From positions 744,001 to 808,000 of the forward strand of contig OZ005703.1 of NCBI GenBank assembly GCA_963930775.1: a stretch of 64,000 nt of DNA, written 5' to 3'. Origin of the DNA: Cliona cf. orientalis. Lineage: Eukaryota; Porifera; Demospongiae; Clionaida; Clionaidae. The notes under the pieces were generated by a model. That model ran no database searches, was not told the origin of the DNA, and saw nothing but the letters and a program-made list of their open reading frames with translations. Positions 9,376 through 56,600 of this stretch are shown piece by piece (position 1 is the stretch's first letter; each line of letters starts with the position of its first letter). Both the position numbers and the translations under genes were made by a program.

Positions 9376-12300
9376 ATGGCGCGATGGTGGAACTTGGAGA
9401 GACTGCTTCTACTCTCTGTATTGATCTGCGCACTAACTAGATATGCCTCAGGTAAGCGAGAGGTTGTACTATAGGTACTGCTATTTATGGGCTTATCAAT
9501 AGTACGTGCATGGTCTATGGGGCCTGGGGGCTGAGAAGTATTTGCGCGCCATTTGTGCTGCAAGTTTACAAGGCGTATAATACTGTTTGCGGAATATCAG
9601 AGTACTGCCTCGGGCAAAAATAATGGGCTATTGTATGTCTGTTTGTTGTAGCGGTATGTGCAGCCTAGCGTGCAAAAACAATGGTGAGTGGTGAGTCTGG
9701 CCACGCACGCATCAGTGGATATTCTCTACTCAAGTGGTGGAGACGGTTTGCTGCTGGACAATTAGAAAGCCATAAAAGCGCCCTCCACTACTTTTGGAAT
9801 TGTATTGCACTACAGAACATCACCCTAGGCCCTTTAGTTACCCTAACACACAGCGTGTGAAACAGAGAATTAGAGGGAAATTAGTAGCTTGGCAGCCTGC
9901 AAGTGCTCCTCCTAAGGAGGGATAAACTTGCCGATATAAACATTTAGCGTCAATTTATCACCCTTGGCAAAAGCACAGCCTAGTTAGTATATAATTTATT
10001 AAAAGACCAACAGTCAGTTGTCTTAACTAGCTATTAATGTATACCATTTTTGTCTGGATCGGCTGAAATTTTTCTCACTCTCGCCATAAATATCATGGGT
10101 GGGCCACAATGTTATTACTACTTGCGAGATTCTAGAACAGATTTGTCCCGCTGATTCAATTTGACCTTTTCCGTCCCCTGAGATGAGCATCGTGTCTCTT
10201 CACATATCCTTCTATAGTTCCTACGCTTGAAATTCCCATGACATCATCGTAATTATTATACTCGTATTATTATACCGCATACTCTCAATAATAATGTGAC
10301 ATTACATAGGGAGTGTCATGCACCTACCAGCCAATCAAATTTAAAGCAGTATTGACGTCCCTTGCACCAATTAGTAGGTTCAGGCGATGCCACTCCTAAA
10401 CTTGCATGCATCGAGTGCCAACCGAGCTTGAGCCAAGCCTGGTCACCAACTCACTCATGCAATCCTTCGCTGACACAATCAGAACATGAGTGCAAGATCT
10501 TGTAGCACTTTGTAATAAGATTTCACATTCCAAACATTTGTGACAAGAGTAGAACATGGCACTGAGTGATTCACTCTCTTAGTTTTTAATATAATAATAT
10601 TGTTATAGCTAGCTATCATGGTGTTGCAAAATGCCTACTGCGCCCCACCCCTCGTGGCTAATAATCCTATAGATATGTGGTGATCTGCATTGGTGTGACT
10701 ATCTCCCTGGGTGCATGCATGCAAGGTTGTTTACAAAATTTAATATCTCCATGGCGCAGAGTTGACGATGACTTGAGAATTTTGAGTGCTAGGTTCTTAA
10801 CAGTATGTAATGTGTCTGCCATTAGCCATGGTCCTGCCCATGTCTCACACAGGTTGTGATGAAGAAGGTGCATGTCTTGAAATGCATATACCCACTTGTT
10901 TAGGCTATGAGTGTAACTATTATAATTATTGCATACCGCTTAAGATACAAGACTATTATAACTGTTTGTACAAGCTAGTGAAGTCCTTTAGTCAGGATCT
11001 GATAGATGGTTTGGTCTTACACTTGACAGATTTCTGGTTTTTAAGTGCTGAGGTGGGCAGCAGCTTGCAAATGTATAGTCTGCACTCGGTCATATAATTC
11101 CTTGGATACCTTACTTAACTTTTTAGATCGTTTACTCCCGTCCAGCCAGCAAGGCGACGTGATGTGGTCATATTACTACAGAGCATTATTTATTGCGCCT
11201 TTTTTTTGTTTTCGTTGTTTTGTGTGTTAGTACCTATCACCGCTTACAATGCTATGCTCGTTGTCACTCCTCTGAGAGGGTCCCTCACTCAAAGGGTGTT
11301 AATCAGACTGCCCCTGTGCTACTAAACAATAATAAACACTTATGAATGACTAGTCTTGAGCAACTTTTATTGGGTGGGTGCTCGATCCTCGTGGTGATGC
11401 TAATACCAACAGGTTAGGTGCTAACAAGGTCACAGTTAGAAGTGGCTGATGCACGAAACACGAAGTGGGTGGAATATTATACAGGAATGGGGATAGATCG
11501 AGATCAATCTGATCAGCTTGTTTTATAGGACGACGCTCTGTAAAGTCTAGCTATTCCATCTGACCATAATCAGCTGTTGAGCATCCACCACAACATTTCA
11601 CCACCTCCCTTCTGATGGTGTCCAATCTATTCAGAGCTTTATACTCCATTTAGCAGCTACGTGCATGGGGGCTCTCCTAGCTGGCGAAAGCTGTTTTTAC
11701 CACATTTGCTCACAGGGGGAAAGATGCATCGTCTCAAGGAAGTAATACTGAGGTGTCTGTGGTGTACTGGAGGTTTTCAGTAGCAAGTCTCTGGTGCAAA
11801 CACAGCCCATGGACAACCACACTGGGCCAGGTCCAGTTTGTCAATTGGGTGATTCGACTGAGTCTGCGCTTATTTAATAATATTATTTATTGGCTAGCTT
11901 TTTATGGGCCTTTGTGTTTAGAGAATATAGTGCTAGAGCTTACTCACACACTCCATAATATCATAGCCTTCAAGTGAAGTCTCCAGCAATGTTGGTAAAA
12001 CACACACATACAATGTTATGCATGTAGAAACGGAAAAAAAAACTACAACTACCTGGTAGGACTGTTCCAATCTGTACTACTGGTAGTATTGATAATTAAA
12101 TCTTGCTTCACGGTCTAAACAAGTCAAGTAGTGCAGCTGGCATCGATTGAAGCATGTATAGCTACTGTACTTCATGCACCGTTAGCAAATACAATCATGT
12201 TGTTTCTCACGGACCCCAGTGACCTACCATAGTCACCCCCTTACAGTGTTTGCACTATTTTAAGTGCCGCGATAACAAATTACAATGTACATACTGCTGA

Positions 12301-14332
12301 CAAGGTGAGTACATAGAGTCTGGCATGCAATAACACAACTATTGGTTATAATAACGATTATACAGGGAGCCTTGTTGTGCTTATATAGCTAGCCTGTGGG
12401 CACGTTATGCTTTTGATGTGAAAACCTATAGGTACTTACTCTTACACTCTATCAAGTGAAGCTGTCAATGTAGCTATATTATGTGATCAAAGCTGAGTAT
12501 GGTATTTGCTTCCATTGACCAGCATGGGTGGCCGCTTGTACGGCACATTGTAGGTAAGCTATGGGACAGCCAACTCGCATCCTATATTATATCTGGCCAT
12601 GCGCTATGATCTCAAATCAGGACAATTTTAGTGATATGCATAATGTATACTATAATATTATCTGAACTATGTATGCTAATGTGCTGGGCTGCTCTTGGCT
12701 ATTATAGTATTGTGTGTCGCTAGGCAGAGAAAGTGAGAAAACCGTCAACTTCAATCGATTGAGTTGCTTTGGATAGGCCTCCCTAGTAGACATTCATTTT
12801 GATGCACGGCACGCACATACTAACACAGAGCCCATATATAGATCTATCACTACCGTGGTACTGCTGAACTACAGTATGGTACGGTACATTAAAGGATTTC
12901 TCCCTTTTGGTAAACAAAAATTACATAACAAAAGGTACAGTATATGCGGTCATTTTCGTGTATCTGTGAAATCTCACTATTTCATTATCATACGTGTTTT
13001 CCCACACGCTCCCTCCCTTTCCCTTCCAAAAAATGTCACTAACAATATTATCAGTCTCGGCGTTTATCAGTGGTACATGTCATTTCATACCTACATTCTA
13101 AGACTAGCTTGCCAAGCCCCATGTACAGTAATAATATAATTTTATTGCTCTTAAAATATGGTAGAACTGACCCTGCATGACTAGTTGTCTAGTAATGTAT
13201 GTAGCTTGCATTTACTTGCCTGTTTGAAGCCTAGCCACCTCAGAGATTGAGCCAATTTGAGAAATTTGTTCCTCGCTGCATACACCTGTGATGCCTTGGG
13301 GCACCATATATAGCAGGAAAGCTAAATATTTTATTATTGTCGGTGCAAAGTAGTATCATACCCAGTATACGGTTACTACAGTTCAATATCTTGTCGTGTT
13401 TCAGCATATTTCTCATAGTTACTCATGGAACTAAATCCGTTATAGACTTCCTGATGTCCGACTAGTTTCAAATTTAATTTTTATTGTGCAAGTTTGTGCA
13501 GAGACAGACAATACACAGCTGCTATAGCTACGTAGTTCGGGCATGCATTGAGCATGAGCCAGCTCAACAGATGGTGTTGTTTTGTAAGAAAGGGCTAGTC
13601 TAAGAGAAAGATATTGTTTTCAGGATAAAGTTTCAAACATCTTATCTTCAATATTCCCCAAGTCCCTTCACATCCCTTTATTCATGATCACCCACCAAAA
13701 CCTCAAAACCTCTCCTCTTTTGCTGTTGTTTTCTCTCAAAACGTTGAAAGAATAATTGTAAACTTTTGCTACATCCAATAACCACAACCCCAGCTATATA
13801 GTGCCTTACATACATGTACAATAGCTTAATGCCGTATTCATGCACAGTACAGACTGGCCACCAGCTGCCCTTTGGCTATGGTAGCTGCCAGTGGAAAAAA
13901 TCTCAGACAGCGGATCGTTTTACACTCACCCCCCCCCCCCTCCTGTACCGATCAATGCATGTATATGATTTGTATGCACAGTAAAGCCATTCATGGGGCA
14001 TTCTTACGGTATTGGATGACATGCCAGTTCAGTATCGATGGGGGACAGAATATTATACTGAATTTAGCTGCGGCACATCAGAAGCCAGCTCTATATAGGT
14101 AGATCATCTTGTGTGGTAAGCGTGGATTAGAGCAAAGGGATCAGATTAATAGATTGCTGCATCTGGCCAAATTAACTACATGATTTAGCTTAGTTGATTG
14201 TGCTCCACACAGACTGTACACAGCGCTACTAGTTACTAGTTGTCCACAATTCTGTTAGCTTAATTTTAAAGTATTTTAAGTGTCTGGTAGTAAGTAAATT
14301 TTGATTCTAACATCATTGTTCTCAGACTGCTT

Positions 14333-14369
<37 letters not shown>

Positions 14370-14387
14370 CCCACCCCACCCCTCTCA

Positions 14388-14479
<92 letters not shown>

Positions 14480-17400
14480 CCCTCTCCCCTTGTGTGCACT
14501 TTCTCTGCCCCCATCGTTGTACATGTGACACTACTCTGACTCTAAACCCTCCTACACATGGAGTACATGATAGTATTTTCTTAAAAGCATGTCGTAACAT
14601 GACTCCTACTGTGTAGGCTGGGGTCAATCCAGGCTATGATTCTCATGCATACACCTCATTTAGACCAGCTACGTATGAAAGCTATGAGCAAATTGATTCT
14701 AAACCATATTCATTGGCGGTCCGCAGTGCATGTCTCTTCTTGTGAAGACAGAATACTAAAGTTTTTTTTATTACTTGGTGTGCTCCATGGGGAATTTTTT
14801 TGTTATTATTTGAGGAGAAGGAGTGAATTTCTTGTTTGTTTATGTTGTCGCTGCCTAGCAACACTCAATGCTTGACTTCATGCACACTCCCTCTACCACG
14901 TAATGATATTCATAGCTCTCAGTGCTACAGACGTGGATATTTGTGTGCAATGTACCGTACACACCTGATTTTGAAAAAAAAAATTGGAAAGCTAAGCATT
15001 TTTTATAAAATTTATACTATTACTGGCTATAAGTCAGTAGCAAACTTAGTATATTATAGCATAGTCCCATCCAGCATGCATAACAATGACAAGTCATCCA
15101 TGTAACTTTAAATGCTGATACTGATAATCAACCCTCCCTACTATCATTTAATTTTTACCAAAATCAACCTACTGATAGATAGAATTTGATGCAAATCTGG
15201 CATATTATTGTCGCACATATCACTCAATCGCCACACTATTTGAGATCAAGAATTTTTGTTTGAGATGCATAATGCAAGAAGTGGTGAACAGAGCATGTTT
15301 GCATGGGAGCTCCTATGAATACTCCCTCGATAGTAGTTGACTGTGAATGTTGGAAAAACTGCCATGTGAGCCAACATAGGGTATTATTACATACAATTAT
15401 GGTGTTTAGGCATTTATGATTACGCTTGGACTTTGCCTATAAACATAGACAGTGTTCCGTGCAGTGCTGGGGAGTAGCTGTACTATACTGACCTTGAGCA
15501 TACATGCTTAGACTAACTGGCTGGGATTATCTAACTATTTAATCATCAATATTACCATTTGTTCCCACTTCCCTTCGATCCCTTCCCATCCTGGCCCCCT
15601 CCCCCCGTACCCACCCACCCACCTCTGCTGCTTTGATCTGCACACACACACACACATTCTTATTCAAGCTGCCAGTGTTGGTGCATACAAGAACAAAATT
15701 TAATAATATACACCAGTGGCGTCTGTAGGTAGTTGTTTAACTGGGTGCAAGTTATTGAAAGTAGCTGCACAGATGGATGCATAAAAAGCTAGCAGAAGTG
15801 TACTATAGTATACATGACATTGTAGTATTATTAATAGTGTAATAACCTAGCTAGGTAATATTCCATGTAGACAGTCTATGTACATATACAGTGATATACG
15901 TTACATTACAGTATAGCTGGCTATGGCAGTGTAGTGAAATATGCCTACTGTGACAGGCTATAGGTAAACATGCATAGGATGGGTGCACAGGTGCATGGAT
16001 TGGGTGCATATGAACCCACATGCACCCCCCTGGTGACGCCACTGATATACACACATGCAGGATCAATAATAACAACACTATATTATACACATGCATTCAC
16101 ACACACACACACACATATTTACAGCTGCACTGTCTATCCGGCAAGGCAGGATTGTCCCAGGGACTCCAGTAAACGTAGCTAATTTTTCGGTCGTCGGCAT
16201 AGCCACAGTGGAGCTTGGTGGCAATCCCGCCAGTAGACCGACCTACTTCTTCGACTGCATCACTACCAGGAACAACGGCTCTGGAATCATGTGGGAAAGA
16301 ATGAGCACTGAACATCGATTTCAAGTAGGGGATATTCCAGGTGACCAACTGGCTGGAAAGAGGCTCAATGCTGGAGGAATAGATTATCCTGATTTGGACA
16401 TCTACATTTGCTCTGATCGGTACAGTGATGATGTCATCTCAGTAAATATCACAGCGTGTAAGTTTGATACAAAAGTTGAAATACCCTGCGCATTAATTTT
16501 ATTAAACTTTATACTCATATAAAATGCCCAGATACACATGTAGCATGTACTGGAAGGATTAATTCCTCTTAGCATAAATGTGAGCCTTTTTTGAAATCTT
16601 TACGAAATTGCTGTCATGATGGCAAAATATTAATTCTCTTGCTGTTCTCTTCTACAGTCAACCCGGCCATAATGGCAGCGGAAGAGACTGTTGGTGTCTT
16701 ACAAGGTCTAACTGTGGAACTAGAGGTCTACGTGTCCGGCTATCCAATACCGTCCAGCTCACAGATCATGTGGTACAATCCCAGAGGGGGTGAAATCTTA
16801 GATGGAGACGCTGGAGTGCAGTTTCAGGATGGTCGCAGAAGACTGATACTGTCCAATGTGGAGACTCAGCAAGCTGGACTGTACGAATGTACCGTTATTT
16901 TATCACATGATCCCTACATGGGCGCCATGACTTATATACAGCTCGACGTCTATGGTAAGCAATATTATTGGAATTGTGCGGCCATCTGAGTTATAGTAGA
17001 ACTTATGTATAGCGTAAGTACTAGTGGTCACTGTGTAAGACAGTCAGCTATATTACCGTAAATCTGGAAATTTTCGTTGTAAAAATATTTTCGTAGTCGG
17101 TGGCGGCTACGAAAATTAATCTTACGAAAATTAGTATGCACTATTAACGCTAATGCGGTAAGGGGTCGTTCCTACGAAAATATTTTTACACGAAAATTTA
17201 TCATACGAAAGTTTCTGTACACGAAAATTTCTAGATCTACGGTATGTACTTATTACTGCCTCTAAGTTCAAGATCCAAGTGATAAAATTCCATACACTAA
17301 TGTGACACCTCTTCAAAGTGGTCATGTACCTAATCCCACTAATATGATGTGTGGCCCATGGGTGCATGGCCGTTTTAGCTCTGTTTTCTATTAGAGTGGT

Positions 17401-18154: not shown

Positions 18155-18185
<31 letters not shown>

Positions 18186-21100
18186 TGCATGCACTCCCAC
18201 ACTCAACATAATATGGACGCTATAATATCCACACACCCACACACACACACCCACACACACACACACTGTCACACCACAGTGCCTTCAGCGATTGAGACGC
18301 AGCCTATAGTGTCAACCGAAGTCGAAGAGTGGACCGAAGTTATCCTAAACTGTTCCGTCAGTGGTTCTCCCATGCCTATGGTCACGTGGGAGAAAGAAGG
18401 ACAGGCGCAGCTACCTGCAGGGGCAGTCCCTTCCCAAAACTGCTCCTCAAGTGGCAATATTGTAAGAACAATCAGCACTTTATATACGATGTCATAATGT
18501 TATTGTGATTTATCCTTTGACTGTAGGTTACTAGCTGTCTGACATTCAAGAGGGTTCGCTATGAGCACAGAGGGAGGTACAGGTGTGTGGCCAACAATAA
18601 TATTATAGTAACTCCTCGAGCAGTCTCTAATTATTCAACTATCGGAGTCTCTCGTAAGCAAAGTAGAAGTTATTCTAAACACAAAATCAATTTCAAAACT
18701 TTTTGCTTTGATTGTGTGCAGCTGTTCTGAGACTAGAGGACGCAGCTATGCAGCCGGTAAACGATCTTTACTTTGTTGAAGATCAGTCGAGTGCTAGGCT
18801 GGAGTGCTTTGGCTCCGGAAATCTGCTATGGAACAGTTCGACTCGTTTGGAAATCCCACAGGGCTCCTCGGGCAATATTTATCAATCATACGATCCAATA
18901 AATGATGTTCTGAGTTTGGTGATTCGAAACTTCACTAGGGTCACTACCTCCACCTACACTTGTACAACGGATCTGACTGATATGCAGAATAAACCAATCA
19001 CTGAGTCTGTGCTCGTCACTAGCTGTAAGTGAAGAGAGGAGAGAGAGAGAGAAGAAGAGAGAGAGAGAGAGAAGGAGAGAGGGGGAGAGGGAGGGAGAGG
19101 GGGAGAGAGAGACGTTTGTGCACTGCTAAATTCAGCTTAATTCTCAATTCCCCTCCACAGTTAATCCTGCTGTCATCATACAGTCTCGAGTACAGTATGT
19201 GCTGGCCGGTACTTCCACCACGCTGGAGGCTAAGGTATTCGCCTCACCTCCTGAGTCAGCAGTAGTGCAGTGGTACCACAGGGGAAGACTCATAAACGAT
19301 ACTACTGAAGCTAAGTACACTGCCACCTCAAGTGGAGACATTCACATGCTAACAGTGGACAGTGTCACTGTTGATGAACTTGGAGAATATACAATTGCCG
19401 TGATTCTTAATAGCGTGAATGCAACTGATAGAATCGTGCTCGAATTTCCAGGTAATTATAACTATCAATGCAAATTGTTATTACTTCTAACTAATTTCTG
19501 AAGTATTAAAATAATAATTATCAATGGAATGGCTCATTGTGCCAACCAACTTGATTATGTAACAATATTCCATGAGTATACATATCATGTAATATATAAG
19601 AGTCTATATAATAGCTATACCTTCTTTTCTAATTTCTACTTACAGTACCTCCCACTGCTACCATATCGCCATCGACAATCTCAGTGACTGAGGGTAACTC
19701 CATTAGTATCACATGTGAAGTTGGGGGCAGCGGACCTCTTACGATCACATGGTCGATGTCCGACGATAGTTCTCTGCCCATGGGCGTGCAGGAGAACGGA
19801 AACACTCTCTTCATTGCTTCAGCTGCCACCACTCATTCTGGGACGTACGTCTGTTCCGTGAGTAATCTGGCTGGTTCAGTGCAAGCGGAAACTACTCTCA
19901 CAGTCTTCTGTAAGTGCTTATTGAACGCAATTTGCAGCAATTTAGGTACTTAATTCTTGTGTTAATTTTTGCTTCTTTTCTTTGTAGATGGTCCAACAGC
20001 TGTTATCACTTATAACAATCAGACTTATACACCTGATCGGCCGCTCTACCGCATTTTTGACGAGAAAACTCAAGGCCCCAACATCTTATGCTCAGGTAGT
20101 GGGAATCTTGCTCCTACGATTAGGTGGATTAGGGAAAATGGTAGGGGCCTACCCAGTGGAATTGCTCAGATAACTCAGCCGAACGGAGACGTTCTACTGA
20201 TATGGCAAAGACCGCTGGAGTTCACGGACTCAGGCTCGTATCACTGCCAAGCCTCGAACAATATCGGGAATATTTCAGCTTCTTTTGAGATTTTGGTTCA
20301 AAGTAAGTTTTGTAGCTAGCTATACTGTGTCAATTATGTCTAGGTTCTTCTCCAGCAATATGTATGCTTCTTGACATGCGGATTGGTGTATGTTACAATT
20401 TTTGACCCCCCTCCTCTCTCTCTCTCTCTCTCTCTCTCGACAGTTGAACCCACCATTAACAGCATCTATCCTTTCAACTCTGTCATCACCCAAGACTCGG
20501 AAGAAACTCATACATACACAGTTCCTGTCAACTACATCGGGAGGACTCTAGTCTGTACAGCTAAAGGTTGGCCTGCCCCAGAAGTTGAGTGGCGTAAAGA
20601 CAATCTCCATCTCCCCAGAGACTCTGGTGTAGTATCAGAGTCTAACGCAATGTCTGCTACGGTCTCTGCAAGACTGACATGGACAAGAGAGTTCAAGGAC
20701 TCTGACGCTGGAGACTACGAGTGTGTCATCCATAAACCGAATACGGAAGTTCCATTGACTTCTCAAATAGTGCGGCTGAATCCTGGTCCCCCTACACCGA
20801 CCCCACCTCCCATGCCTTGTAGCGTTGACCAGCAATCTATCTATTTTCAAATTCGTGTACTTGGGACAAGCTGTGACAGCTGGGAAGGAGTTCAAGGTGA
20901 AGATATTGCAAATGAGCTCCGCAGCGTTGTCAGGACAGAGTGTGGCTGTACAGTTGATGACAGTAGTTTGGAGGTGACCGGATCTGCTCAGTGCAGCAGC
21001 AAAGTTAACGGAGCGGCCGTGTTCCGTGGACGAATTGAAGCAAGGTCACAACAGGACACTGAGAGTATATTCTGCACTCTGTTTTCTTGGCAACAGAAGA

Positions 21101-22912
21101 CGCCTCTCATCCGAGTCAATGACCAGCTTAGAACAGTGGACACAAGCTGCTCTCTCAGAGCCAGCAATTCACCGAATAGCGAAGAATGTGCTGCACCTGA
21201 AGATTCATCAAGCTTTGGACCAGTGGAGGGAGCGATCACTGGAGCTTTTGTCGGCACTGCTGTCTTAGTTCTTGTGGTGGTTCTGATCATTGTATCGGTT
21301 TATTGCTACCGCCGGCGAACAGGGAGTAAGGACTACAGCATCGACGTTGAAGGCACTGACCACACTTACTCAAGGTTAGTTATCAATATTAACTATAATA
21401 ATAATACAGTATGTGAAATACTAGCTGTTCTGAGACTTATCATAAATTCATTATACTGTTACAGTAGCTTCATCCTTTTATTTTAATATATTTTTATGCA
21501 CATATATTATTATAATCTATAGGACGGAATCATATACGAGGTATGGTCCACATAGTATCAATACACAAGAGGAACCTGTCTACAGCACTCTAACTCGAGG
21601 AAACACGGATGTCCCACAACACATGGAGAACATCCCTCTCGGGAAATTTCCAAACGATTCGAGTGAAAATTTAATCCCCGATGGAGCAATACCGGAAGAA
21701 TCAGCACCCAGGATGAAATCGGCTGCAGCATACCAGATTCCCGTGAGCAGCCAAGAAAATCTAGCATCTCCTGCCCCTGGTAGTGTGAATAACTTCCAAG
21801 CGATGAAGCGACAAGCAAGTACCAGCACCACTACTGTTGGGTACCACTCCACCAGTCACATTAATAGATCGAGTCCAATACAGAAGGTGCCACTACCTCG
21901 GCCTTCAAATTCATCCAACGAAGAGGGAAACAATGTCATGATAAGTGCAACAAGTCCGTGGAACGATTACGAACACATCGACGGAGACGATGCTTTTTCG
22001 CCAAGTTCCTCATTCTGTGATAGTCCGATATCCATTCCTGGCAAAGGACGACAGCAGAGTTCAGCTGGAAGAATGCGTACCTCTCCTAGAAGTAGCCAAA
22101 GACAACATGGCAATGCGGGGATGTCTGCTTCCGTACCCGTAGGGATCAACCCACCACAACTTGGGCCGACGGTTTTTGCCGTTGTGGAAGAGGATGGTGA
22201 TGAATTTAACACCACAGCAACAAGAGTTGCGGCTTCTCATCAGATACTGAACAATGGAAGGCCAGAGAGAAATACGACTATGCAAACTCGTGGAGTTAAT
22301 GACAGGGGCAGCCACAGCCCTACAGGGAGTACTGGGTCATCCTCCCCACACATGATGAAACAGGCGCTGATGTCGCAATTTCAGTCGGTCGATCACATGA
22401 CCAGCCGTCCCACTAGAGTGCCGGGCCGGGAGTCTAACTGCTCCGAAGCCCCACCTCCCTACACCTCCAGACCCTCATCGGAAGCCGTTCCCAACTCCGA
22501 TTCCGCTGACTCATCGATGATGGATAATGCAGCATACGGAGAGAGCCACCATCGTCCGTGGTACCAGGCTAGCGATTTTTCGTTAGATTCGAGTCTCCCA
22601 TCGACCATGTCTCCTGCTTCTAACAACTCCACCGGTGAACACATACAGCCTTACGCCATGATACCCAACGAGCACATCCCCTACCCCACCCACCACAAGA
22701 CTAGCACCACGAAGCTGAACAGTAACGAATCGAGTGCCATCATCGTGAGACGATCTAGCAATAATAGCAATCAGCAGCAGAAGCAGCAAAAGCAGAAGTC
22801 TACCTTCCAAACTCAGCCACCAGTCCAACCTTACGCCGAACCAATAAGATCCAGCGTTGCTAGCTTAGGCCACGCTCAAGATAGTCCTACCTTCTTCGAG
22901 GTGGTTGTTTAA
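9376..22912 (+). CDS. IgA: type I membrane receptor, 8 Ig-like domains, 8-Cys module, long tyrosine-rich tail (1502 aa)
   Basis: Exons: 9376-9451, 16125-16457, 16658-16954, 18280-18461, 18527-18653, 18722-19024, 19161-19451, 19646-19909, 19988-20302, 20444-21374, 21523-22912. Exon 1 encodes a signal peptide (MARWWNLERLLLLSVLICAL) ending in phase 1. The 6.7-kb first intron is inferred from phase and from the same layout in IgB and IgC. Ig-like domains (paired Cys, Trp, then a Y-x-C strand) map one per exon, all with phase-1 borders: residues 26-136, 137-235, 236-338 (two exons split by a phase-0 intron), 339-439, 440-536, 537-624, 625-729, 730-~850. A membrane-proximal module with eight cysteines follows (~852-980), then a transmembrane helix (~992-1016) and a 460-residue Ser/Pro-rich tail. 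The tail has motifs DHTYSR, PVYSTL, AAYQIP, NDYEHI, PPPYTS and QPYAMI. No kinase, phosphatase or TIR domain is visible. The likely role is cell-surface recognition or adhesion signalling through phosphotyrosine docking; the function is inferred. Confidence 0.8.
9452..16124 (+). other. IgA first intron (6.7 kb)
   Basis: A long intron between the signal-peptide exon and the first Ig exon. It contains a TC microsatellite block (14337-14486), CA runs near 15642-15655 and 16096-16114, and scattered ATAATATTAT words. Short open frames exist but none has splice context or recognisable protein features. An alternative, closer first exon cannot be excluded without transcripts. Confidence 0.5.
14337..14486. 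repeat. (TC)n microsatellite
   Basis: Two CT-dinucleotide tracts (about 14337-14363 and 14384-14486) separated by a C-rich spacer, in the first intron of IgA. Long Ser-Leu and Arg-Glu frames across it are not genes. Confidence 0.95.
17054..17244. mobile_element. MITE-like element, ~191 bp, TA-bounded
   Basis: Starts TACCGTAAATCTGGAAATTT and ends with the near reverse complement (its other end read backwards is TACCGTAGATCTAGAAATTT). TA lies at both outer ends, as expected for a Tc1/mariner-type target. The interior contains repeated acgaaaat words in both orientations, so the element is largely self-complementary. It has no coding capacity. It lies in the IgA intron between the second and third Ig domains. 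Confidence 0.8.
18231..18270. repeat. (CA)n tract upstream of IgA exon 4
   Basis: A CA-dinucleotide run ending about 10 bp before the acceptor of the exon at 18280, with a second run near 18155-18186. IgB has a similar CA-rich stretch (about 28270-28318) in the same position, so the feature is shared between paralogous introns. Confidence 0.8.
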
Positions 22913-24931: not shown

Positions 24932-24940
24932 TATAAATAA
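24932..24940 (+). promoter_or_regulatory. TATA-like box of IgB
   Basis: The sequence TATAAATAA lies 49-57 bp upstream of the IgB start codon at 24989. That leaves room for transcription to start about 25-30 bp downstream, near 24965. Position and sequence are the only evidence. Confidence 0.35.
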
Positions 24941-24988
24941 GGTCATTCACCGTGACATCGAGACTGAGAAGGAACCGCCGCGTCTACG

Positions 24989-27900
24989 ATGAAGAAGCGA
25001 GCTGTTTTGTGGCTGATCGTGGTGTGTATGGTGATCAATCAAGGCTCTGGTGAGTAATAGTATGTCTATTTGTACTATAGATGTCAGATCTATAGCGTTC
25101 AAATCTACGAAATTCGCGCGAACAAGTGCATGCATGCATGTATAAATTTATAGCTCGATCGAGCACAAGTTGGGCTCCTGGTATAAATCTCAGCTTGGCA
25201 TGCCCAGGGGCCATAAGTCGACACAAAGGCCTTATCCTGCAAATTTATCACGCATGAACTGCATGCATGTTAGGTGTATTCGGGCGTGCAGTAACAATAA
25301 TGCACCTATAGAGCTGTGTTCAACTTGGCATGACTGAAGTCACCTCATGATCTGGTTCAGTGGCAGTTCAGTGGTTTGAACTCTAAATATCACGACTAGC
25401 CTAGGTATTTGAGTGCAAAAATACGATATTAGCTATTGTAACAGCCTGTGCTCATTGATCGGTTGCACAGCATTAAAATTTTGCTGATGATCAGACTAGA
25501 CTGGCGCCTTACCTTTGCATGTCATGCATTTTGAACAGATGGTTCACGGTGGAGCATACACGCTTTAAATGAATTCATAGTAGCTAGCTAGCTAGCCACT
25601 TTTAATCGAGTCGGTAAAAATATTTTTCCTTTAAGTCTGGAATAGCCTAATAATATTATTATTGATGCTATAGGCACATGTCATGATAGATCTAACACCT
25701 GGTCCATTAGATAAAAATAATAATATTGTAGCTCGGTGAAGTATGAATGGAAAACCATTATCAGTGATTCTGTTGGAGGATGCTGTTATTGAAAAAGCGT
25801 ACACATGCATGCATGTATACGTATAAGCTATACCTCCTCAGAACGGATCAGTTTAATATTATAATATATACACACCCTGCGCCGGCCACGGTGAGCGGTT
25901 GCCAGATCCAGGATGTTAATCAGTCTGGCTGCATTGTCAAGAATGAAATTAATGCTTGTAGCACTTGTAGAGTGATCACAACAACATGACACTGTGCCTC
26001 CCTACTGTAGCTACATGTCTCTTCCGTCTGGTACAGCAGTTAAGCCTAAAATTGAAATTTTAAAACTGGCCCACTGGATCGTGCGAGACGCATGATTCAA
26101 CATTGACTTCCATTGAATCCTAGACAAGCGTCTCTTCTGTAACGACAGGTCACAAATTGATCATTTTTAATTTGGTGCAGATGTATCCATTTTTGGGCAC
26201 CAACTAGCTATAGCTACATGTACTGAATGTGTTTTTGCAAGTGAATCTCTCTCCCAACTTATTTGCATTGCTGTGTTAATACTCAACATAAGCCGTTAAC
26301 TAATAATTGACTGTGCATTAGCTAACAGTGCGTAGTCAGAGCTCATCCATTGAGCATCGATGGTTTAGATAATTTCTCCTTCAAAATGAGGCATATGGAT
26401 GAACAAAACTTGTGATATTATGCATGATACTATGTTTTTCTATGCATGGCTAATGATCATAACAGTTTGGAATTTGAGACCACGATTAGTTAACATAGCA
26501 GATGCATTCTCCGACTAGGCTGGTTTGGATAAGGGGAAGCCTCGAATGTATGTTGGAGTTGGTGACCAAATTCTCCAGTGGATTGCTGTACTAGTAGGGG
26601 TGTCTCTATAGCTCTATATTATAGCCTCCCAAAATGTGGCTGTTTCTGTATATATAATATTATTGTGATTTTTTTGTTTTGGCACTATTTCCAAGAAATG
26701 ATTCGATTGTGAATCAGTAGCTATATTTATATTTTGCAAGCTATATAATAGTACTTGTGCTCACTTTGAAAACAAACTATAACAAACACAATTAGTGAAA
26801 TGCAAACAGTTTATTATTATGCATCCTATTGATAATAATGCATTCATGTCAATGAAGTGTTTTTCGCTATAATAATAAAATTATTATACAGTTTTAAGTA
26901 CACTTGTGCTAGCTTATACACTATCAGTATGCATGACATTTTACTTCACTGTGCAGCAATACTGACCCTGAGACAAAGTCGAACTCCCCCAGGAGGGGCG
27001 ACCAGCATAACTACAGTCGTTGGCATAGCCACAGTGGAGCTAGGTGGTCTCTCTACCAGTCAGCCAACCTACTACTTCGATTGTATCACCAACTTGAACA
27101 ATGGTTCTGGTATCAGGTGGGATAGAACGAATGGCCTGAATCGGTTTCGGATTATAGACATCCCAGACGGCTCACCCGGGAAAAGATTGGATACTTCAGA
27201 TATTAATTATCCTGATCTTGATACCTATATATGCTCAGATCGATACAGCACTGATGTGGCTTCTGTGAATATCAATGCATGTGAGTCAATACAGTAGAGT
27301 AGCCTCATCCCCAGGCTTTCTCTTGATCTACCGGCTTTTAATGTTGCACGCAAAAAGCTGGGAGATCGAGAAAGGGCCTGGCATGGGGATGAGGCTAACA
27401 GTAGAGTGTATGCAGGCAGGCACTTTTGCTTGCACATATCATGCATGCAGGCTACGCTAGGGAAGTAGTTAAGGTGATTTGGGATTTTGGCTTCATATTG
27501 ATATGCTATGTTTATATAGTTGTAGTATGTAAACTATCGTTATGGGCGCAAACAATTGCTCGGACACATACAATTCAATACAAAATTTAATTAAAAATGC
27601 GCATTTTCCGAAAAAACGAATGTGCCTACCCGAGTGCATAAAAATGGTCATAACTCCACTTGTGATCAATATTTTTTCATGAAACTTGCACCATTGGATT
27701 CAGCACACACAGAGCTATCAATCCATGCTAAAAACTCAATTTTTATGAAATATCCCGAGTGGTCCCTTTTCTCAGAGCAGGTCACATTTAATCATTATGT
27801 ACACATGCAGCTAATCCGGCCATAATGCCAGCAGAAGGGACTGTTGGCGTCTTACAAGGTCTAACCGTGGAGCTCGAGGTCTACGTGTCCGGCTATCCCA

Positions 27901-30900
27901 CGCCAACCAGCTCACACATCACATGGTATCATCCGGATCGATCTGAAATCTCAGACGATGACTCAGGGGCAGTGTTTCAAGACGGTAGGCGAAGACTGAT
28001 ACTCTCCAACGTGCAGCCCCATCAGGCTGGCGTGTATGAGTGTGAGGTAGTTGTTTCACTTTCACCTTACATGGGCGCTGTGACATCAATTCTACTTGAA
28101 GTTTATGGTAAGTGAATTTAATCATACCCTAGGTAGATAGTTGAAGCAAAATATGATGTGTACATGGATTGGGCGAGGTGTTTCACAACTTAGGGCATGC
28201 ACAAAATTGAAGATTAAAACTGACTCAGTGTACCTATCCAAACAATACATACATACTTGTACTTAAAAATGCACGCACACACACGTACTCACATTTTGAC
28301 ATGCACATACACACACGTGCAGTCCCATCAGTGATCACAGCTCACCCTCAAGCAATAGTCAATGCTACGGAATGGAGCGAGGTTGTACTGACGTGCTCCG
28401 CCAGTGGAACCCCCACTCCTACGATCCGATGGGAGAGAGAGGGAGAAGCACAGCTGCCTGTTGGAGCAGTACCATCTCCCCCTGGATCCATGAGTGGAAA
28501 CACAGTAAGAAGAACTATGTAGCTATTATTATTATGTAAACCTGCTATGAGAAATTAAGGGACCGTTCGATATGGCACGCAGTATCAAATAAGATTAAAT
28601 TTTTATCGTGCATGACAATATCCAACTTACTTCCTATATACAAATGTATACTTGTATCAGCATAGACACTAATATGGAGTAGATACACCTACAGTACATT
28701 TGTATTATTACAATAAGCTACATAGCTACTACAAAGATAAAGGTCCCATTGTTATGGTTCCATTATAATCAATTATGTAGATGTATAGCTATGTATGAGA
28801 ATGATTGTCTTCTGATTGTAGGCCACTAGCCTGTTAACATTTGAGATGGTTCGCTACGAGCACAGAGGGAGGTACAGATGTGTAGCAGACAACCGTGAGA
28901 CCACTATAGTTGTATCCGAGTATGCAGATATCAGAATCACTCGTAAGAGTCTACTAGCTATATTGTTATAATAGCATCAAGCACCCAGTCACATTATTAC
29001 AATAATGCATATTTTTTGTGAATATGTTATAATATAGCTGCTCTGAGACTTGAGGACAATATGAAGCAACCCATTAGCGATCTTTATCCTGTTGAAAATG
29101 AAATTAGTGTCAGACTGGAGTGTCGAGGCACTGGAACTCTCCAGTGGAGCAGTTCAACTACAGGCTTACAAATTCCATCAGACTCCTCCAGCAATGTTCA
29201 TCAGGCATATGATCATACAAGGGATGCTCTCGCTCTAGTGATTCAGAACTTTACAAGTATCACTACAGCTACTTATACTTGTATGACAAATCTGACTGAT
29301 GCCCACAACAGCCCAATCACCACCTCTATACTCATCACTAGCTGTAAGTGAGAAGGGAAGGGAGAGAGAGAGAGAGATTGCATCAACTATATTATTCCCC
29401 CTCCGCAGCTAATCCTGATGTCATCATTCAGTCTGAAATCCAGTATGTACTCGCGGACAGCTCCACCACACTGGAGGCTAGGGTGTTTGCCTCACCTCCA
29501 GAGTCTGCAGTAGTGCAGTGGTACCACAAGGAAAGACTCATAGACAATGCTACTGAATCATCATACACAACAACTTCAGTAGGAGATTTATACAGACTAA
29601 CAGTGAATGGAGTCAGTGAGAATGAGGTTGGAGAATACACAATCGTTGTGACTCTCAATGGAAGGAATGCAACTGATAGAATTACACTAAGTCTTCCAGG
29701 TACATGGCTACACATCTCAGATTCAGCATTGTAAAAATTAATTCCCATATTCATTAGTACGCTAGGCAGAATTTTTGAAAAAATAGAACAAGTTGCATAT
29801 TTTTCCTTTCTTCTTGGTTCTCATGCTTTCTTGATCCTTGTTATACTATATTTAATACATGTTACATTGCAGACCGTCCTTTAGCCACTGTTACTCCATT
29901 ACAAGCCACAGTCAGTGAGGGAGAGAGGGTGAGATTTACGTGCAATGCTCAGGGCAGTGGACCGCTCGTGGTGACGTGGACCAAGTCTGATGGCAGTCCC
30001 CTACCAGTGGGAGTGCAAGAGAATGGGAACAGCATCTCTATAGCCTCAGCCACCAGCTCCCATCCTGGGACATACGTCTGCACAGTCAGCAATCTGGCAG
30101 GAAATATAAAAGCTAACGCCACTCTTACCGTCTACTGTGAGTATAGAAGTTATTACTGAAAGTTGTTTGTAAGAGAAAGTGGAAAGGCTTCATTTGAAAA
30201 CCCTTAGATTCCCCTACTTACTGCGTACTTCACTTGGATACTCCATGTACGTTATTGCATAATTATTACTCATAGACTATTATTTTCACTCTAGATTCAC
30301 CGACAGCTGTCATCTCTTACGACAGAACTATGTCCACTCCGGGGACTCAACCGCTCTACCTTATTTTTGATCACGGAGCCACACGCCCCACCATCACATG
30401 TTCAGCTAATGGTAATCCCCTTCCAAATGTCCAATGGGTTAGAGGTAATGGCGGGGGTTTACCCAGTGGAATTCTGCAACAGGATGCTCCATCAAGCAAT
30501 GGAGAAGTGGCTAAACAACTGTCATGGCAGAGAAATGTGGAATTCACAGATTCGGGCTCATACATCTGTCGAGCTTTCAATAGCAACGGAACTGACAATG
30601 CAACTCTAGAGCTTTTAGTACAAAGTAAGTAGACACGTTACAGTACACTGTTGTGAATCAATAACATCTTTTGATCATTTTCCCTACACAGTTCAGCCGA
30701 CCATCAATAGTATTTCTCCTTCCAATTCCATGATCCAACAAGACTCACAACAAATATTCACATTTGCAGTTCCCATTGACTACGTAGGAAGTGTTTTAAC
30801 CTGTACAGCTAATGGGTGGCCAGCCCCAGTGGTAGAATGGCATAAAAATAATGTGCCTGTGCCTAGTAACAATGGTATTGTATCCGAATCCATCATAACT

Positions 30901-33180
30901 TCTGCCACAGTATCCGCAAGACTCACATGGATGAGAGAGTTTGCAGAGACTGATGCTGACAGCTACCAGTGTGTCGTGTATAAGCAAAATACCGAAATTC
31001 CTGTGGTGTCTCAAACTGTGCAGCTCAATGCTCGATTGCCAATCACAATTTCGCCTACATCTCAATCTTGTAGCGTTCAACAAACATCCATTCACTTTCA
31101 AATACGAGCATTTGCAACGAACTGCGAAAGCTGGGGAGAGGCAGAGAGAGCAGAAATAGCCAGTGAATTCCGCAATGAACTATTGAGTGTTATCAGAGCT
31201 GAGTGCAGCTGTACATTTGAGGAGAGCAGCTTGCAAGAATTGGAATCAGCCCAGTGCAGCAGCAAAGTTAATAGAGCGGTTGTATTCCGTGGACAAATTG
31301 AAACACTTTCGCAACGAGAAACTGAACTGATATTTTGTTCACTACATTCGTGGCAACAAAAATCATCTCTAATCCGAATCGATGGCCAACTCAGAGCCAT
31401 TGATACCAACTGTTCACTAGAAGCTAGTGGGTCACTGAATAGTGAAGAGTGTGCTCCACCAACTGACTCAACCCCCATTTTAGGACTGATCGAGATAGTG
31501 GCCATCGCTGGAGGGGCAGCTGTCTTTATCCTGCTCTTGGTGATAATTTTGCTCATTTGCTGCCTAGCATATTGCCGGTACCGTAGGGGGAGAAAAGGGA
31601 AATTTGACACTAAAGATGACCATACTTACACAAGGTATATAGGCCAGCAACATATGCACATTAATATTGCTTATATTAATTTTGCTCTGTGTCATGTCTG
31701 TATTAGGCTATATGCCCGAACTATCATGGGTATAATAATAATGTTGGAGATTAATAATACAAATTATTTAACCATCGGATAATGATGTTATTGTCAATTT
31801 TCCTACAGGACCGACTCTTTCTCAAGATACAGCAGAGACGGAGTAGGAATGCTGACGAGAAACGGAGGGATGGTGAGGGGAGGAGTGGAGCCAACCTACA
31901 GTGCACTCTCTCCGGAAACGATGGACCACCAATCGTCGCAATCCTATCCAGAGCAGATCACCCTCCATCAAATTCTTAGCACCTCAAGCGAAAACTTGAT
32001 CAATTCGGACGGCATTGATGGTGGGATGAGAGTTCCATCGAGCTTGAGGACTAGGACACAACAGACTGAGCCAGCAGCCTATCAGATCCCCATAAACAGT
32101 CGAGAAAATCTAACCTTGGTCGGTAGAATGGACAACAGCGGAAGAGTTCAAGCGGGAAGCTCCAATAAGAGACATGTTAGCAGTACTTCGAGCTACGACT
32201 CGACCAGTCACTTGTTGAACCGAATGCAGAATCCACGACCCTCAATCGCGTCGATCGAAGATAATGTGAACGATTATGAAGATATTAGTGGCGATGATGG
32301 TTCAGTATGTGATAGTCCCACACCAGCTTCTGGTAGAGCACATGGGCGACCGAGTGTTGGCAGCAATGCACATATGTACCACCAGCTGACCGAAACTAGA
32401 AAGCAGTCAGATACCCCAGCTCCACCCGCATCGTTCTTCGTCAGTGAGAGCTCACGATCGTTGAGAGGTACGATGTCTGGGTCTGCTATTGGTAACAGTT
32501 TCACACACACGTCTGGTTCCCAAATAATGCCCAGTAGCAGCGGTGGTGCTGGCAGCAGACCTCAGCGATCCAGCGAAACAACAAGAATACCCCAGTTACA
32601 ACAAACTAGCAATCGAATTGGTGACGGTAATAATCACACTACTGCAGGGTCAACAGCCTCATGTCTCAACAACAGGAAACAAGAGCTCATGGCACAATTT
32701 CAGTCGGCAGACGACGACGTGGCCACCCATCCTAGAGTAGATCCAGAATCTTCCAACGATTACTCCAAGCTCCAAATTCCCCCCTACACCTCCTTCTCCG
32801 GTAGACCCTCTTCAGATGCTATTCTTCACACCACAGACTCCAGTGGTAGGGATTCGCCAATGATAGATAACGCAGCGTACGGAGGAGTTAATCGCGAGCA
32901 GCAACACCCCTGGTATTATGAGAGTGACGTGTCCCTGAATTCCAGTACACCTCAGACTGTACCTGCTAATGCTAAAAGTAACATTACGAAGCGAGATCAG
33001 ATAGAACCTTATGCTGTGATACATAGCGAACATGTGTCCCACCCAGGCCAGAAAGTTAACGGTACGAAATTTAACTTTAATAACAATTCGAGCGCACAGT
33101 TCAGATCCAACAGCCGACAAAGGTCAGAAGTTCAACCTTTCGCTGAGTCAGGGATGCCCAGTGCTGCTACTGAAGTTTAA
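24989..33180 (+). CDS. IgB: type I membrane receptor, 8 Ig-like domains, 8-Cys module, long tyrosine-rich tail (1496 aa)
   Basis: Exons: 24989-25049, 26957-27280, 27811-28107, 28323-28504, 28822-28942, 29038-29343, 29409-29699, 29873-30136, 30295-30624, 30692-31634, 31809-33180. The architecture is exon for exon that of IgA, and four exons have identical lengths (297, 182, 291 and 264 nt). Signal peptide MKKRAVLWLIVVCMVINQGS; Ig-like domains in exons 2-10; eight-cysteine module ~849-979; transmembrane helix ~991-1018 (AIAGGAAVFILLLVIILLIC). The tail of about 470 residues shares motifs with IgA: DHTYTR, PTYSAL, AAYQIP...ENL, NDYEDI, PPYTSF, DNAAYG and EPYAVI. Extra tyrosines in IgB (HMYHQL, NDYSKL) have no IgA counterpart, and the last IgA QPYAEP is QPFAES here. 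It is a tandem paralogue on the same strand, 2.1 kb downstream of IgA. Function is inferred as surface recognition; no ligand can be deduced. Confidence 0.85.
25050..26956 (+). other. IgB first intron (1.9 kb)
   Basis: Separates the signal-peptide exon from the first Ig exon, with phase-1 ends as in IgA and IgC. AT-rich, with several ATAATATTAT tracts. No other feature was recognised. Confidence 0.6.
27300..27397. repeat. Small palindromic element with TAGCCTCATCCCC ends
   Basis: Begins TAGCCTCATCCCCAGGC and ends with the inverse ggcatggggatgaggcta; inner words (ttctc..gatct) are also inverted. It is about 98 bp and non-coding, in the IgB intron between its first and second Ig exons. Related end words occur near 40343-40356 (cctggggatgaggcta) and 6284-6297 (cggggacgaggcta), suggesting a dispersed family. 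Confidence 0.6.
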
Positions 33181-33957: not shown

Positions 33958-36617
33958 ATGAGGAGTTTTCTATTGCTTCTTTTGTGTGTAGTTGGCCTTC
34001 AAGGGATTGGCAAAGGTGAGCAGTGAGCTATTCCGCAGACCTCTCCTTTGTCCCTTATTCTTGGATAAAAAATTCGACAATGAATTTTAATTTTTCAGCT
34101 ACTCTGGTGATCAGGCAAGGCAGGATTACTGCTAGTGCCCCAGTGAAAGCAGAAATTTTTCCAGTTGTCGGCATAGCCACAGTGGAGCTAGGTGGCAATG
34201 ATTCTGCTCGACCAACCTACTTCTTCGATTGCATCACTAACGTGCCCATGAACAATGGCTCTGGTATCACATGGAGTCGAATGGCCGTGGATTCACATCG
34301 GTTTGACATAGGTGACATTCCTGGAGGTAATGTAACTGGGAGGAGAATGAATGCAGGTGGAATCATTTATGGTGATCTTGGTGTATACATTTGCTCCGAT
34401 TTTGCAAACGATGATTCAGTTTCAGTGAATATCACTGGCTGTAAGTTATGTCAAAGATAACTATGATATGGCCTGATAATCTTATTTGAAGACAATAGCT
34501 ACATGTGCGTGAATTTCAAAATGACATGCTCACATAATCATTATTATTAATAATATTAGCAAATCCAGCCATAGTGGCAGTGAGGAAGCAGGTGAAGGTG
34601 ATACAAGGCCAGTCAGTTGCACTAGAAGTCTACGCTTCTGGGTATCCTACCCTTTGGATCACGTGGCACTATCCCAACCATTCGGCCATCATGGGGCACA
34701 TTGATGAGGGAGTAAAGTTTGAAAAGGGTCGCAGGAAATTAGTACTCTCCGAGGTACATCCGGAGCAAGCTGGACTGTACTCTTGCCAAGTGAAAGTATC
34801 ACTAGATCCCTATATGGGAGCTGAAGCTGAGATTCAGTTGCAAGTTTTTGGTATAATATACATCAATGAAAGTTAATGAGTATCTGCTTGACATACACTA
34901 GACCAAAACTGTGATTTCCTTCTCAGACTTCAGTGTTTACATGACATTTCCTACACATATTTGTCGGAGGATAGGGCAGAATTTTTGCTAACTTGAATGA
35001 AATAAGCAGAAAATTTGCTCTATCCTACACATTTCCTACCCGCACAAAATCCATATTTTCGTCTAGTGATACATGAAGAGTAGATAAGCCATAATCTCTC
35101 TTGCTAACATAAACATAATATCTATCATAATGCACCTGCTTTGAGCTTGCTGCTTTGGGACAGCTAAACTTACAGTGATAATATCTATAAATAATTATTT
35201 AATTCTTTCTTGTTTTCGTATTGTTACCAACTTTCTTTCCAAACATGCAGCTAAGCCAACTATACACACATTCAGTGCTGACCCCATACACCAGGAAGCT
35301 GATAATGTGTACTCTGTTCCACTAAACTACATCGGTACCGTCCTAGTATGTGCGGCAGAGGGGTGGCCATCACCAGATTCAGTCGTCAAGTGGCGAAAAA
35401 ATGGCTTCACCTTACACAGAGAACGTGATATCATCTCGGAATACATCATTGACGTTAGGGGTACCTCAAATTCAGACGTATCTGTGCTGGCAGAGCTGAC
35501 GTGGACAAGAGAATTCGGGGATTCAGATGAAGGAGTGTATAAGTGTATTGTGCATCAAAGGAATACCAGCTTTTGGGGGATTTCTCAAAGTATTGAGCTC
35601 AAAGCGGTAACTGCGACCACGCATATGGAGACTGATCGTCCATGGACTATGTGTACATCTAGCATCAACAAACGAGTGGTATATTTTCAGATACGCATGG
35701 TTGGGGTGGACTGCCTAACTTGGATGGAGTTGCAGACTCTGAAAGAGCATATAGCAACAGAAGTTCATCAAGAACTCCTGCTTGCCATTGAATACGAGTG
35801 TGACTGTGCTGTTGATGAAAGAGAGTTGCAGTTGGTAGGTGCACCTCAGTGCAGTGTTCAGATGGATGACGCTGCCATGTTTCATGGGATAATTCAGACA
35901 AATTCTCTTGATAAAACCAGACTGATTTTCTGTGCCCTATCCTTCTGGTTGGAAGGATCAGCTCAGCTTCAAATCGATGGCGAATTTCTGGTCATTGATT
36001 CAAGCTGTCCCTTGGAGGCTTCAGAAACTTTAAGTGAAGAATGTAGTCCACCAGCGACACCCAGTAGTAATAAAAACGTTAAGGAGGTACTGGTGATAGC
36101 TGGTGGAATAGGGGCCTTTGTAGTGATAGTGATCTTGCTCATCAGCGTCGTATGCTGCATTGGGTGTTATTATCTATTGCGTACACGAAAGAACAGCAAG
36201 TGTAAAAATGGTACAAAAGAAGTGGCCGAAGGTGACCACACCTATGATCAGTGAGTTTTAATAATAATATTATACAGGAGTCTGCCTCATTTATCATTAT
36301 TACAAAATTTAATCTTGTGCAGCATTGACTTCCATTCAAGGTATAGCAGCAATATTAATGGACGACCAAACAATGTCATGCCTGCGCTGAAGGGTGGTGA
36401 GCGAGCTCAAGCTACTGTGAGTATTGAACTAGGGGCGGAGAGCCTGTACTCCTATGGTCAATTTCAACCATCAATGATCACCGATGCTGCTAGTACACAT
36501 GGTGATGATACGGAAGATCAAATATATGAACAAATTTCAAATCTTGATCTCCAACTTGAAAGTGAAGAAGCTCAGCCTTACTCTGTGCCAGTGAGAGCTA
36601 ACATAACAGCTGCTTAG
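33958..36617 (+). CDS. IgC: short paralogue with 3 Ig-like domains, 8-Cys module and a different short tail (661 aa)
   Basis: Exons: 33958-34015, 34099-34440, 34560-34850, 35251-36250, 36323-36617. Signal peptide MRSFLLLLLCVVGLQGIG with a phase-1 end. Domain 1 (residues 20-133) carries the same VVGIATVELGG and PTYFFDCIT core as IgA and IgB. Domain 2 spans 134-230. Exon 4 then encodes the membrane-proximal Ig domain (ending LTWTREF...VYKCIV), the eight-cysteine module (~361-495) and a transmembrane helix (~509-539). The exons for Ig domains 3-7 of IgA and IgB are absent; the 400-bp intron at the junction shows no recognisable remnant. The tail is about 120 residues, keeps DHTYD at the same place, then diverges. 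Its tyrosines lie in LYSYGQF, IYEQIS and QPYSVP contexts. The first intron is only 83 bp. The gene looks intact rather than a pseudogene. It could be a decoy or partner of the longer receptors, or the older short form. Confidence 0.85.
34851..35250 (+). other. IgC intron at the site of the missing Ig domains 3-7
   Basis: A 400-bp intron joining Ig domain 2 to the membrane-proximal Ig domain. It contains the dispersed fragment also found at 23530-23615 (gatagggcag... cctacacatttcc... gtctagtg). No residual Ig-coding sequence was seen. Confidence 0.7.
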
Positions 36618-47964: not shown

Positions 47965-48048
<84 letters not shown>

Positions 48049-56475: not shown

Positions 56476-56600
56476 AATTAAATTTGATTTAATTTGCTGT
56501 GAGTCTCTCAATTCTACTGTAACTGGACTTGCTAGGCTAAGTGTGCATGCTTTTATTGAAATTTTTCCTGCAGCTATTGATAGAAGTCAGTGTGTGCATA

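What the first reader, a model, noticed from the sequence alone, without database searches (positions are those of the whole stretch)
9376..36617. Tandem cluster of three Ig-domain receptors with tyrosine-motif tails: candidate recognition system of an early animal
Seen: three adjacent same-strand genes with the same signal peptide exon, phase-1 Ig exons, eight-cysteine module, transmembrane helix and tyrosine-rich tail, and no kinase. Known: tandem families of type I Ig-superfamily proteins with tyrosine-based tails act in allorecognition (Hydractinia Alr) and in immunity (vertebrate ITIM/ITAM receptors). Inference: this cluster could act in self/non-self recognition or cell sorting. No sequence similarity to Alr is claimed beyond the plan.
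Basis: partly seen in the sequence, partly recalled or inferred. Interest (0 to 1): 0.8.

Follow-up and report, generated by a model that had tools for sequence, protein, structure and literature searches.

The report
Sponge cluster of tyrosine-tailed Ig receptors
Three neighbouring genes of a reef sponge appear to make surface receptors built of antibody-like domains on an unusual cysteine-rich stalk, with a tyrosine-bearing tail and no enzyme of their own; they belong to a large receptor set of this animal, but nothing found here shows that they tell self from non-self.

Summary
The three genes are real by sequence: g1 (9376-22912, 1502 aa), g2 (24989-33180, 1496 aa), g3 (33958-36617, 661 aa). 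All are open, GT-AG spliced, same-strand type I receptors. g1 and g2 have 8 Ig domains, g3 has 3. Each then has an eight-cysteine module, one membrane helix and a kinase-less tail. The module has no Pfam family; its predicted fold is SEA-like; about 100 further places in this genome match it. The N-terminal Ig pair recurs at five other loci, two of them decayed. The tails hold no canonical ITIM or ITAM, yet 11 of 15 tail tyrosines are kept between g1 and g2, and each tail has a Y[DE]x[ILV] site. dN/dS between paralogues is below 1 wherever it can be estimated. I read them as adhesion or recognition receptors that signal by phosphotyrosine docking. Allorecognition is neither shown nor excluded: alleles could not be examined. 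The most surprising result lies outside the window: other receptors with the same module carry two ITIM matches, or a conserved tandem YxxI/V tail resembling an ITAM.

The parts
9376..9451 (+). g1 exon 1, candidate signal peptide; 6.7 kb intron follows
   Evidence: the better of two candidates found between 8700 and 16120
16125..16457 (+). g1 Ig domain 1 (D1)
   Evidence: Ig by its family
16658..16954 (+). g1 D2 (no B-strand cysteine, lone F-strand cysteine)
18280..18653 (+). g1 D3, two exons 18280-18461 and 18527-18653 (phase-0 intron inside)
18722..20302 (+). g1 D4-D7, exons 18722-19024, 19161-19451, 19646-19909, 19988-20302
20444..21374 (+). g1 D8, eight-cysteine SEA-like module (20809-21201), membrane helix, start of tail
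21523..22912 (+). g1 cytoplasmic tail exon
24989..25049 (+). g2 exon 1, candidate signal peptide
   Evidence: a similar exon lies before a decayed copy on C4
26957..30624 (+). g2 D1-D7 exons
30692..31634 (+). g2 D8, SEA-like module (31060-31464), membrane helix, start of tail
31809..33180 (+). g2 cytoplasmic tail exon; a genome search with it found only itself
33958..34015 (+). g3 exon 1, candidate signal peptide
   Evidence: chosen among three candidates, two sharing a start at 33791
34099..34850 (+). g3 D1 (34099-34440) and D2 (34560-34850)
35251..36250 (+). g3 D8, SEA-like module (35640-36056), membrane helix, start of tail
36323..36617 (+). g3 short cytoplasmic tail exon

Best explanation
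g1, g2 and g3 are paralogous, kinase-less type I Ig receptors of a demosponge. The Ig stack is held off the membrane by a disulphide-rich SEA-like module. Binding of a ligand on a neighbouring cell or particle would cluster the receptors; Src-type cytoplasmic kinases would phosphorylate tail tyrosines, and SH2 proteins would dock there, above all at Y[DE]x[ILV] sites. g1 and g2 give a long multi-site scaffold, g3 a short receptor with the same outer two domains. The likeliest role is cell adhesion or recognition with downstream signalling in normal tissue, under purifying selection. Shown by sequence: gene structure, domains, kinase absence, tyrosine conservation, dN/dS below 1 where estimable, SH2 and tyrosine kinase genes in this genome. 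Inferred: disulphides, ligand, clustering, phosphorylation, role.
For: Open spliced models with one signal-like start and one membrane helix. Ig domains by Pfam (D1 by its family 82, 89). 11 of 15 aligned tail tyrosines kept between g1 and g2 against 170 of 426 residues overall, Fisher p 0.013. Y[DE]x[ILV] in all three tails, aligned YEHI/YEDI in g1/g2, two in g3; joint shuffle P 0.0018, motif chosen after looking. dN/dS g1-g2 0.12-0.45 in the ten regions with unsaturated dS. 80 SH2 matches at E up to 1e-6, several in one open frame with a tyrosine kinase, e.g. C12:708361 with C12:707497. The module recurs before a membrane helix and, by eye, tyrosine-bearing tails in other receptors: of 16 loci read, 11 have a helix in the same frame.
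Against: No ligand, expression or phosphorylation data. The tyrosine test is modest (p 0.013), and for g1 and g2 taken singly the Y[DE]x[ILV] count is not above shuffles (P 0.15 and 0.17; g3 P 0.009). Core YxxI/L/V counts exceed shuffles only in g2 (P 0.004; g1 0.24, g3 0.31). The rest of the tails is poorly conserved (40% identity), which could also mean relaxed constraint. D1 could not be modelled with confidence (pLDDT 47). Gene models lack transcript support.
Confidence: 0.55

Rival explanations
1. Allorecognition receptors: the cluster is polymorphic between individuals and decides fusion or rejection, like Hydractinia Alr or the Botryllus fester co-receptors.
For: Tandem kinase-less Ig receptors with tyrosine tails; decayed copies on another chromosome show gene turnover; a short-tailed paralogue with D1-D5 and a helix at C15:304k; core YxxI/L/V sites in all three tails, a motif also named for fester co-receptors (PMC12065747 passages).
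Against: No ITIM, ITAM or ITSM in the three tails. dN/dS below 1 in every outer domain that can be estimated, also between younger duplicates. D1 and D2 are among the best conserved Ig domains, where a polymorphic receptor would be expected to vary most. Only three genes in the cluster; the next D1-D2 locus found lies about 450 kb away. Ig exons of individuals could not be compared.
Confidence: 0.12
2. Immune or symbiont receptors: they bind microbes or the intracellular dinoflagellates that this species houses and control uptake or tolerance.
For: C. orientalis is host to intracellular Symbiodiniaceae (PMC12639293 passages). Receptors with the same stalk module elsewhere in the genome carry ITIM-like pairs or tandem YxxI/V tails, and module places lie in clusters, as immune receptor families often do.
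Against: No lectin, SRCR or other pattern-binding domain in the three proteins. No expression data. The window genes themselves lack ITIM and ITAM.
Confidence: 0.2
3. Plain adhesion or spacer molecules with no signalling: the tails are disordered linkers and the tyrosines are incidental.
For: Tyrosine content of the g1/g2 tails is about 3%; canonical immune motifs absent; tail identity between g1 and g2 only 40%; Y[DE]x[ILV] in g1 and g2 singly no more than chance.
Against: 11 of 15 tyrosines conserved in an otherwise diverged tail; aligned YE[HD]I in g1/g2 and two such sites in g3.
Confidence: 0.13

Closest known systems
Hydractinia Alr family (allorecognition complex)
   Same: Clustered single-pass Ig-superfamily receptors without a kinase; probable pseudogene relatives exist (PMC11067881 passages); Ig domains that depart from the usual residue pattern (for Alr recalled; here D2 and D5).
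   Different: [quoted passage not shown] ITAM/ITIM motifs are reported there (PMC12065747 passages). Here 3 genes, 8 or 3 Ig domains, a SEA-like module, no ITIM/ITAM, purifying selection between paralogues. No Alr sequence was compared.
Botryllus fester co-receptors (FcoR)
   Same: Type I, Ig domains, long tail that can hold core YxxI/L/V sites (PMC12065747 passages).
   Different: FcoR have a V-type Ig, a sushi and two C2 Ig domains, and can hold ITIM or hemITAM; no SEA-like module is mentioned in the passages seen.
SEA domains (MUC16, TROP2, Gpr126)
Sponge Ig receptor tyrosine kinase and cell recognition molecules (Geodia, recalled)
   Same: Sponge type I Ig proteins. The D1 profile reaches chains named 'Cell recognition molecule, long form' (8ovq, E 0.011) and 'Receptor tyrosine kinase (Fragment)' (8qpx, E 0.022) among many Ig chains; that these are Geodia proteins is recalled.
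   Different: No kinase here, a SEA-like module, 3 or 8 Ig domains. Many other Ig chains, such as VEGFR2 and Robo, match the D1 profile better.

Membership tests
Immunoglobulin superfamily | Ig domains by curated profile | tested here: met
   I-set E 1.5e-59 (g1) and 1.8e-63 (g2), Ig_3 4.9e-15 (g3), all over cut-off; D1 family: Ig_3 in 4 of 7 members, best E 1.6e-6
ITIM/ITAM immunoreceptors | canonical ITIM, ITSM or ITAM in the tail | tested here: not met
   0 matches in each of the three window tails
Receptor tyrosine kinases | intracellular kinase domain | tested here: not met
   no kinase among Pfam matches of the three full proteins
Hydractinia Alr | highly polymorphic extracellular domain | not testable with these tools
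   alternate haplotype and other individuals not held here
Hydractinia Alr | many related genes in one genomic interval | tested here: inconclusive
   three genes in the cluster; other D1-D2 loci dispersed on C15 and C4
Hydractinia Alr | sequence or fold similarity to Alr domains | not tested
   no Alr sequence or model was at hand
SEA domain | match to the Pfam SEA profile | tested here: not met
   no SEA match in 9 scanned module sequences at E up to 10 (HMMER filters drop most weak matches)
SEA domain | SEA fold | tested here: inconclusive
   [not shown]
SEA domain | GSVVV-type self-cleavage site between strands 2 and 3 (motif recalled) | tested here: not met
   by eye in the three window modules; several known SEA domains lack it too (recalled)

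The most novel reading that the evidence does not exclude
This sponge has a large lineage of kinase-less receptors defined by a cysteine-rich SEA-like stalk, with Ig, FN3 and other ectodomains and with ITIM-like pairs, tandem YxxI/V (ITAM-like) tails and Src-SH2-like sites: an immunoreceptor-style system as old as sponges or invented there, with the window cluster as its long-tailed Ig branch in cell recognition.
Probability: 0.2. Interest if true: 0.85.

Novelty: new variant of a known kind. Interest (0 to 1): 0.5.

Why it matters
The three genes give named candidates for contact signalling in an animal without nerves or immune organs. More broadly, a stalk module matched at about 100 further places in one sponge genome, in some cases before tails with immunoreceptor-like motifs, bears on whether tyrosine-motif immune receptors arose before cnidarians and bilaterians. 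Both haplotypes of this animal are deposited (PMC12639293 passages), so polymorphism can be tested directly.

Tried and rejected
ITIM/ITAM reading of the three tails: no match. Positive selection on D1/D2: not seen in paralogues or in younger duplicates. Hidden alternative Ig exons in the window: none outside the modelled exons at E 0.01. Allelic extra copies on small contigs: the D1-D2 searches hit only C15 and C4 at E below 1e-3; one of these, C15:1527571 (E 3.5e-6, two stops), was not followed. A kinase joined to the C15:2.72M relative: as read, its tail runs to a stop after about 85 residues and the kinase and Kelch-like frames lie beyond it. D1 model: pLDDT 47, not used. Profile comparison of D1 with the other Ig domains gave only partial alignments. 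Module profile against PDB sequences: no match at E up to 10. The search with the g2 tail found only itself, so it misses even the diverged g1 tail.

Literature: searches. None of their listings showed, by title and start of abstract, a paper on this cluster or on a sponge SEA-like receptor family; one search (SEA domain, sponge, transmembrane receptor, Amphimedon) returned none. Most subscription papers are not held, so this is weak evidence of absence. Read as passages only: PMC11999971, PMC11067881, PMC12065747, PMC12639293. Huene et al. 2022 is not held. Other papers were seen only as listings.
Full report
WHERE IT IS. The window is G000:C15:744001-808000 of a 216.8 Mb assembly in 149 contigs. 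Ten contig lengths seen (C1 37.50, C2 14.80, C4 11.51, C6 11.33, C8 9.97, C10 9.79, C11 9.46, C13 8.93, C15 8.35, C19 7.22 Mb) match the chromosome table of Cliona cf. orientalis odCliOrie1.1 (PMC12639293, passages). That paper gives 217.17 Mb in 307 scaffolds, so the held copy lacks small pieces. I take the organism to be that demosponge; this rests on lengths, not on a name given by the tool.

THE GENES. Exons were placed by open frame and splice site and joined. g1 has 11 exons and 1502 aa, g2 11 exons and 1496 aa, g3 5 exons and 661 aa; all are open with GT-AG introns. Introns are phase 1 between domains, phase 0 inside D3 (g1, g2) and phase 2 before the tail. Hydropathy gives a signal-peptide-like start and one membrane helix in each, plus one marginal stretch (1.62) inside D2 of g2. 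Pfam finds Ig families over cut-off and nothing enzymatic. g1 and g2 carry eight Ig domains; g3 keeps D1, D2 and D8. By eye, D2 lacks the B-strand cysteine in all six family members aligned, and D5 of g1 and g2 lacks both. D1 of g1 alone has no Pfam match, but 4 of 7 family members match Ig_3 (best E 1.6e-6), and the seven keep the cysteine pair and the D-L-x-x-Y-x-C end.

RELATIVES OF THE OUTER DOMAINS. Besides the three window genes, D1-D2 pairs occur at C15:304k, C15:2.72M (two pairs), C4:3.668M, C4:7.297M and C4:7.341M. C15:304k has D1-D5, then, as read, a membrane helix and about 16 more residues. C15:2.72M ends in a helix and a tail of about 85 residues. The C4:7.3M copies are 78-90% identical to g2 in most matched exons and broken by a stop or frame breaks. 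A tree groups them with g2 (100/99); the fork holding g1, g2, g3 and these copies has 86/89, with g3 on a long branch. D7 has no other close copy (best other match 42% identical); D5 has six places in all, three of them on C4.

TAILS. No ITIM, ITSM or ITAM in any of the three. Core YxxI/L/V: 3 in g1 (shuffle P 0.24), 6 in g2 (P 0.004), 2 in g3 (P 0.31). Of 15 aligned tail tyrosines 11 are kept between g1 and g2 against 170 of 426 residues overall (p 0.013). A post hoc motif, Y[DE]x[ILV], which resembles the Src SH2 ligand pYEEI (recalled), occurs in all three (4 in total, joint shuffle P 0.0018; g1, g2 and g3 singly P 0.15, 0.17, 0.009). The genome has 80 SH2 matches at E up to 1e-6, several sharing an open frame with a tyrosine kinase.

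SELECTION. Nei-Gojobori estimates between g1 and g2 are dN/dS 0.15 (D1), 0.20 (D2), 0.22 (D3), 0.31 (D4), 0.35 (D5), 0.17 (D6), 0.24 (D7), 0.20 (D8), 0.12 (module), 0.45 (helix region); signal peptide and tail are saturated in dS. Against g3 the unsaturated values are 0.18-0.59. Younger pairs: D1 0.45 and D2 0.29 between C15:2.72M and C4:3.67M; 0.13-0.55 among g2 and the C4:7.3M copies. Averages can hide a few selected sites, and paralogues say nothing of alleles.

OUTSIDE THE WINDOW. Two neighbouring receptors with the module (C15:5.830M, 4 Ig-like frames by eye, and C15:5.850M) each have two ITIM matches (shuffle P 0.008 and 0.014); they are recent duplicates and so count nearly as one. C15:7.336M has two overlapping ITAM matches (P 0.0002) (7 tails tested, cut from the 16 loci read; the other 4 of the 7 had neither motif). 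Reading 8 more places of the C15:7.29-7.43M cluster, four of the 8 (L047, L051, L052, L053) share with L040 the tail [DE]YE.[IL]DKY.KEY.D[IV]; L047 and L040 meet the strict ITAM rule, the other three have V in the second half. L054 has YERLDIY. L048-L050 show no helix in the module's frame. With V allowed, the tandem motif is in 5 of 14 tails tested and in none of the window's three. Against over-reading: tail frames were chosen by eye, and the same patterns also strike frames that I judged non-coding (one ITAM match in L048 and several ITIM matches), so single matches are weak; the shared tail of five genes is the stronger evidence, though those genes are related.

READING. The plan, kinase-less Ig receptor with conserved docking tyrosines, fits contact or ligand signalling through cytoplasmic kinases (inference). 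Purifying selection between paralogues, well-kept outer domains and the lack of ITIM/ITAM lower the case for allorecognition but do not close it, since alleles were not seen. A role towards the intracellular dinoflagellates of this species is a fair rival.

Noticed in passing
C15:7.29-7.43 Mb of the same genome; L040, L047, L051-L053: Receptors with the same SEA-like module share a tail [DE]YE.[IL]DKY.KEY.D[IV]; two of these five (L040, L047) meet the strict ITAM rule, the others have V in the second half.
   Followed up: partly
C15:5.830 Mb and 5.850 Mb; L036, L046: Two recent duplicates with the module, a helix and a tail with two ITIM matches each; L036 shows 4 Ig-like frames upstream. A third, broken match of the module lies near 5.880 Mb.
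   Followed up: partly
C4:7.28-7.30 Mb and 7.335-7.343 Mb; L026-L028: Decayed copies of a g2-like D1-D5 block, one with a signal-peptide exon 75% identical to that of g2.
   Followed up: partly
L021, C15:about 302-305 kb, minus strand: D1-D5 relative with, as read, a membrane helix that holds a glutamate and a tail of about 16 residues: a short-tailed counterpart.
   Followed up: partly
window 55558-58175, minus strand: Two tandem open frames of 342 and 331 aa (stop to stop), much alike, with no Pfam match at E 0.01.
   Followed up: no
window 23169-23263 and 23435-23529: A 95-base direct repeat, 98% identical, between g1 and g2; another unit nearby, 23563-23610, recurs at 35021-35068 (83%).
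   Followed up: no
window 37880-55152: Neighbours by Pfam: a CDC20/Fizzy-type WD40 frame, an EBP2-like frame, a weak MFS match and an LMBR1-like frame, none related to the cluster.
   Followed up: no
L023, C15:2.726-2.728 Mb: A kinase-like frame overlapping a Kelch-like frame (both by eye) just downstream of the C15:2.72M receptor; seems a separate gene.
   Followed up: no
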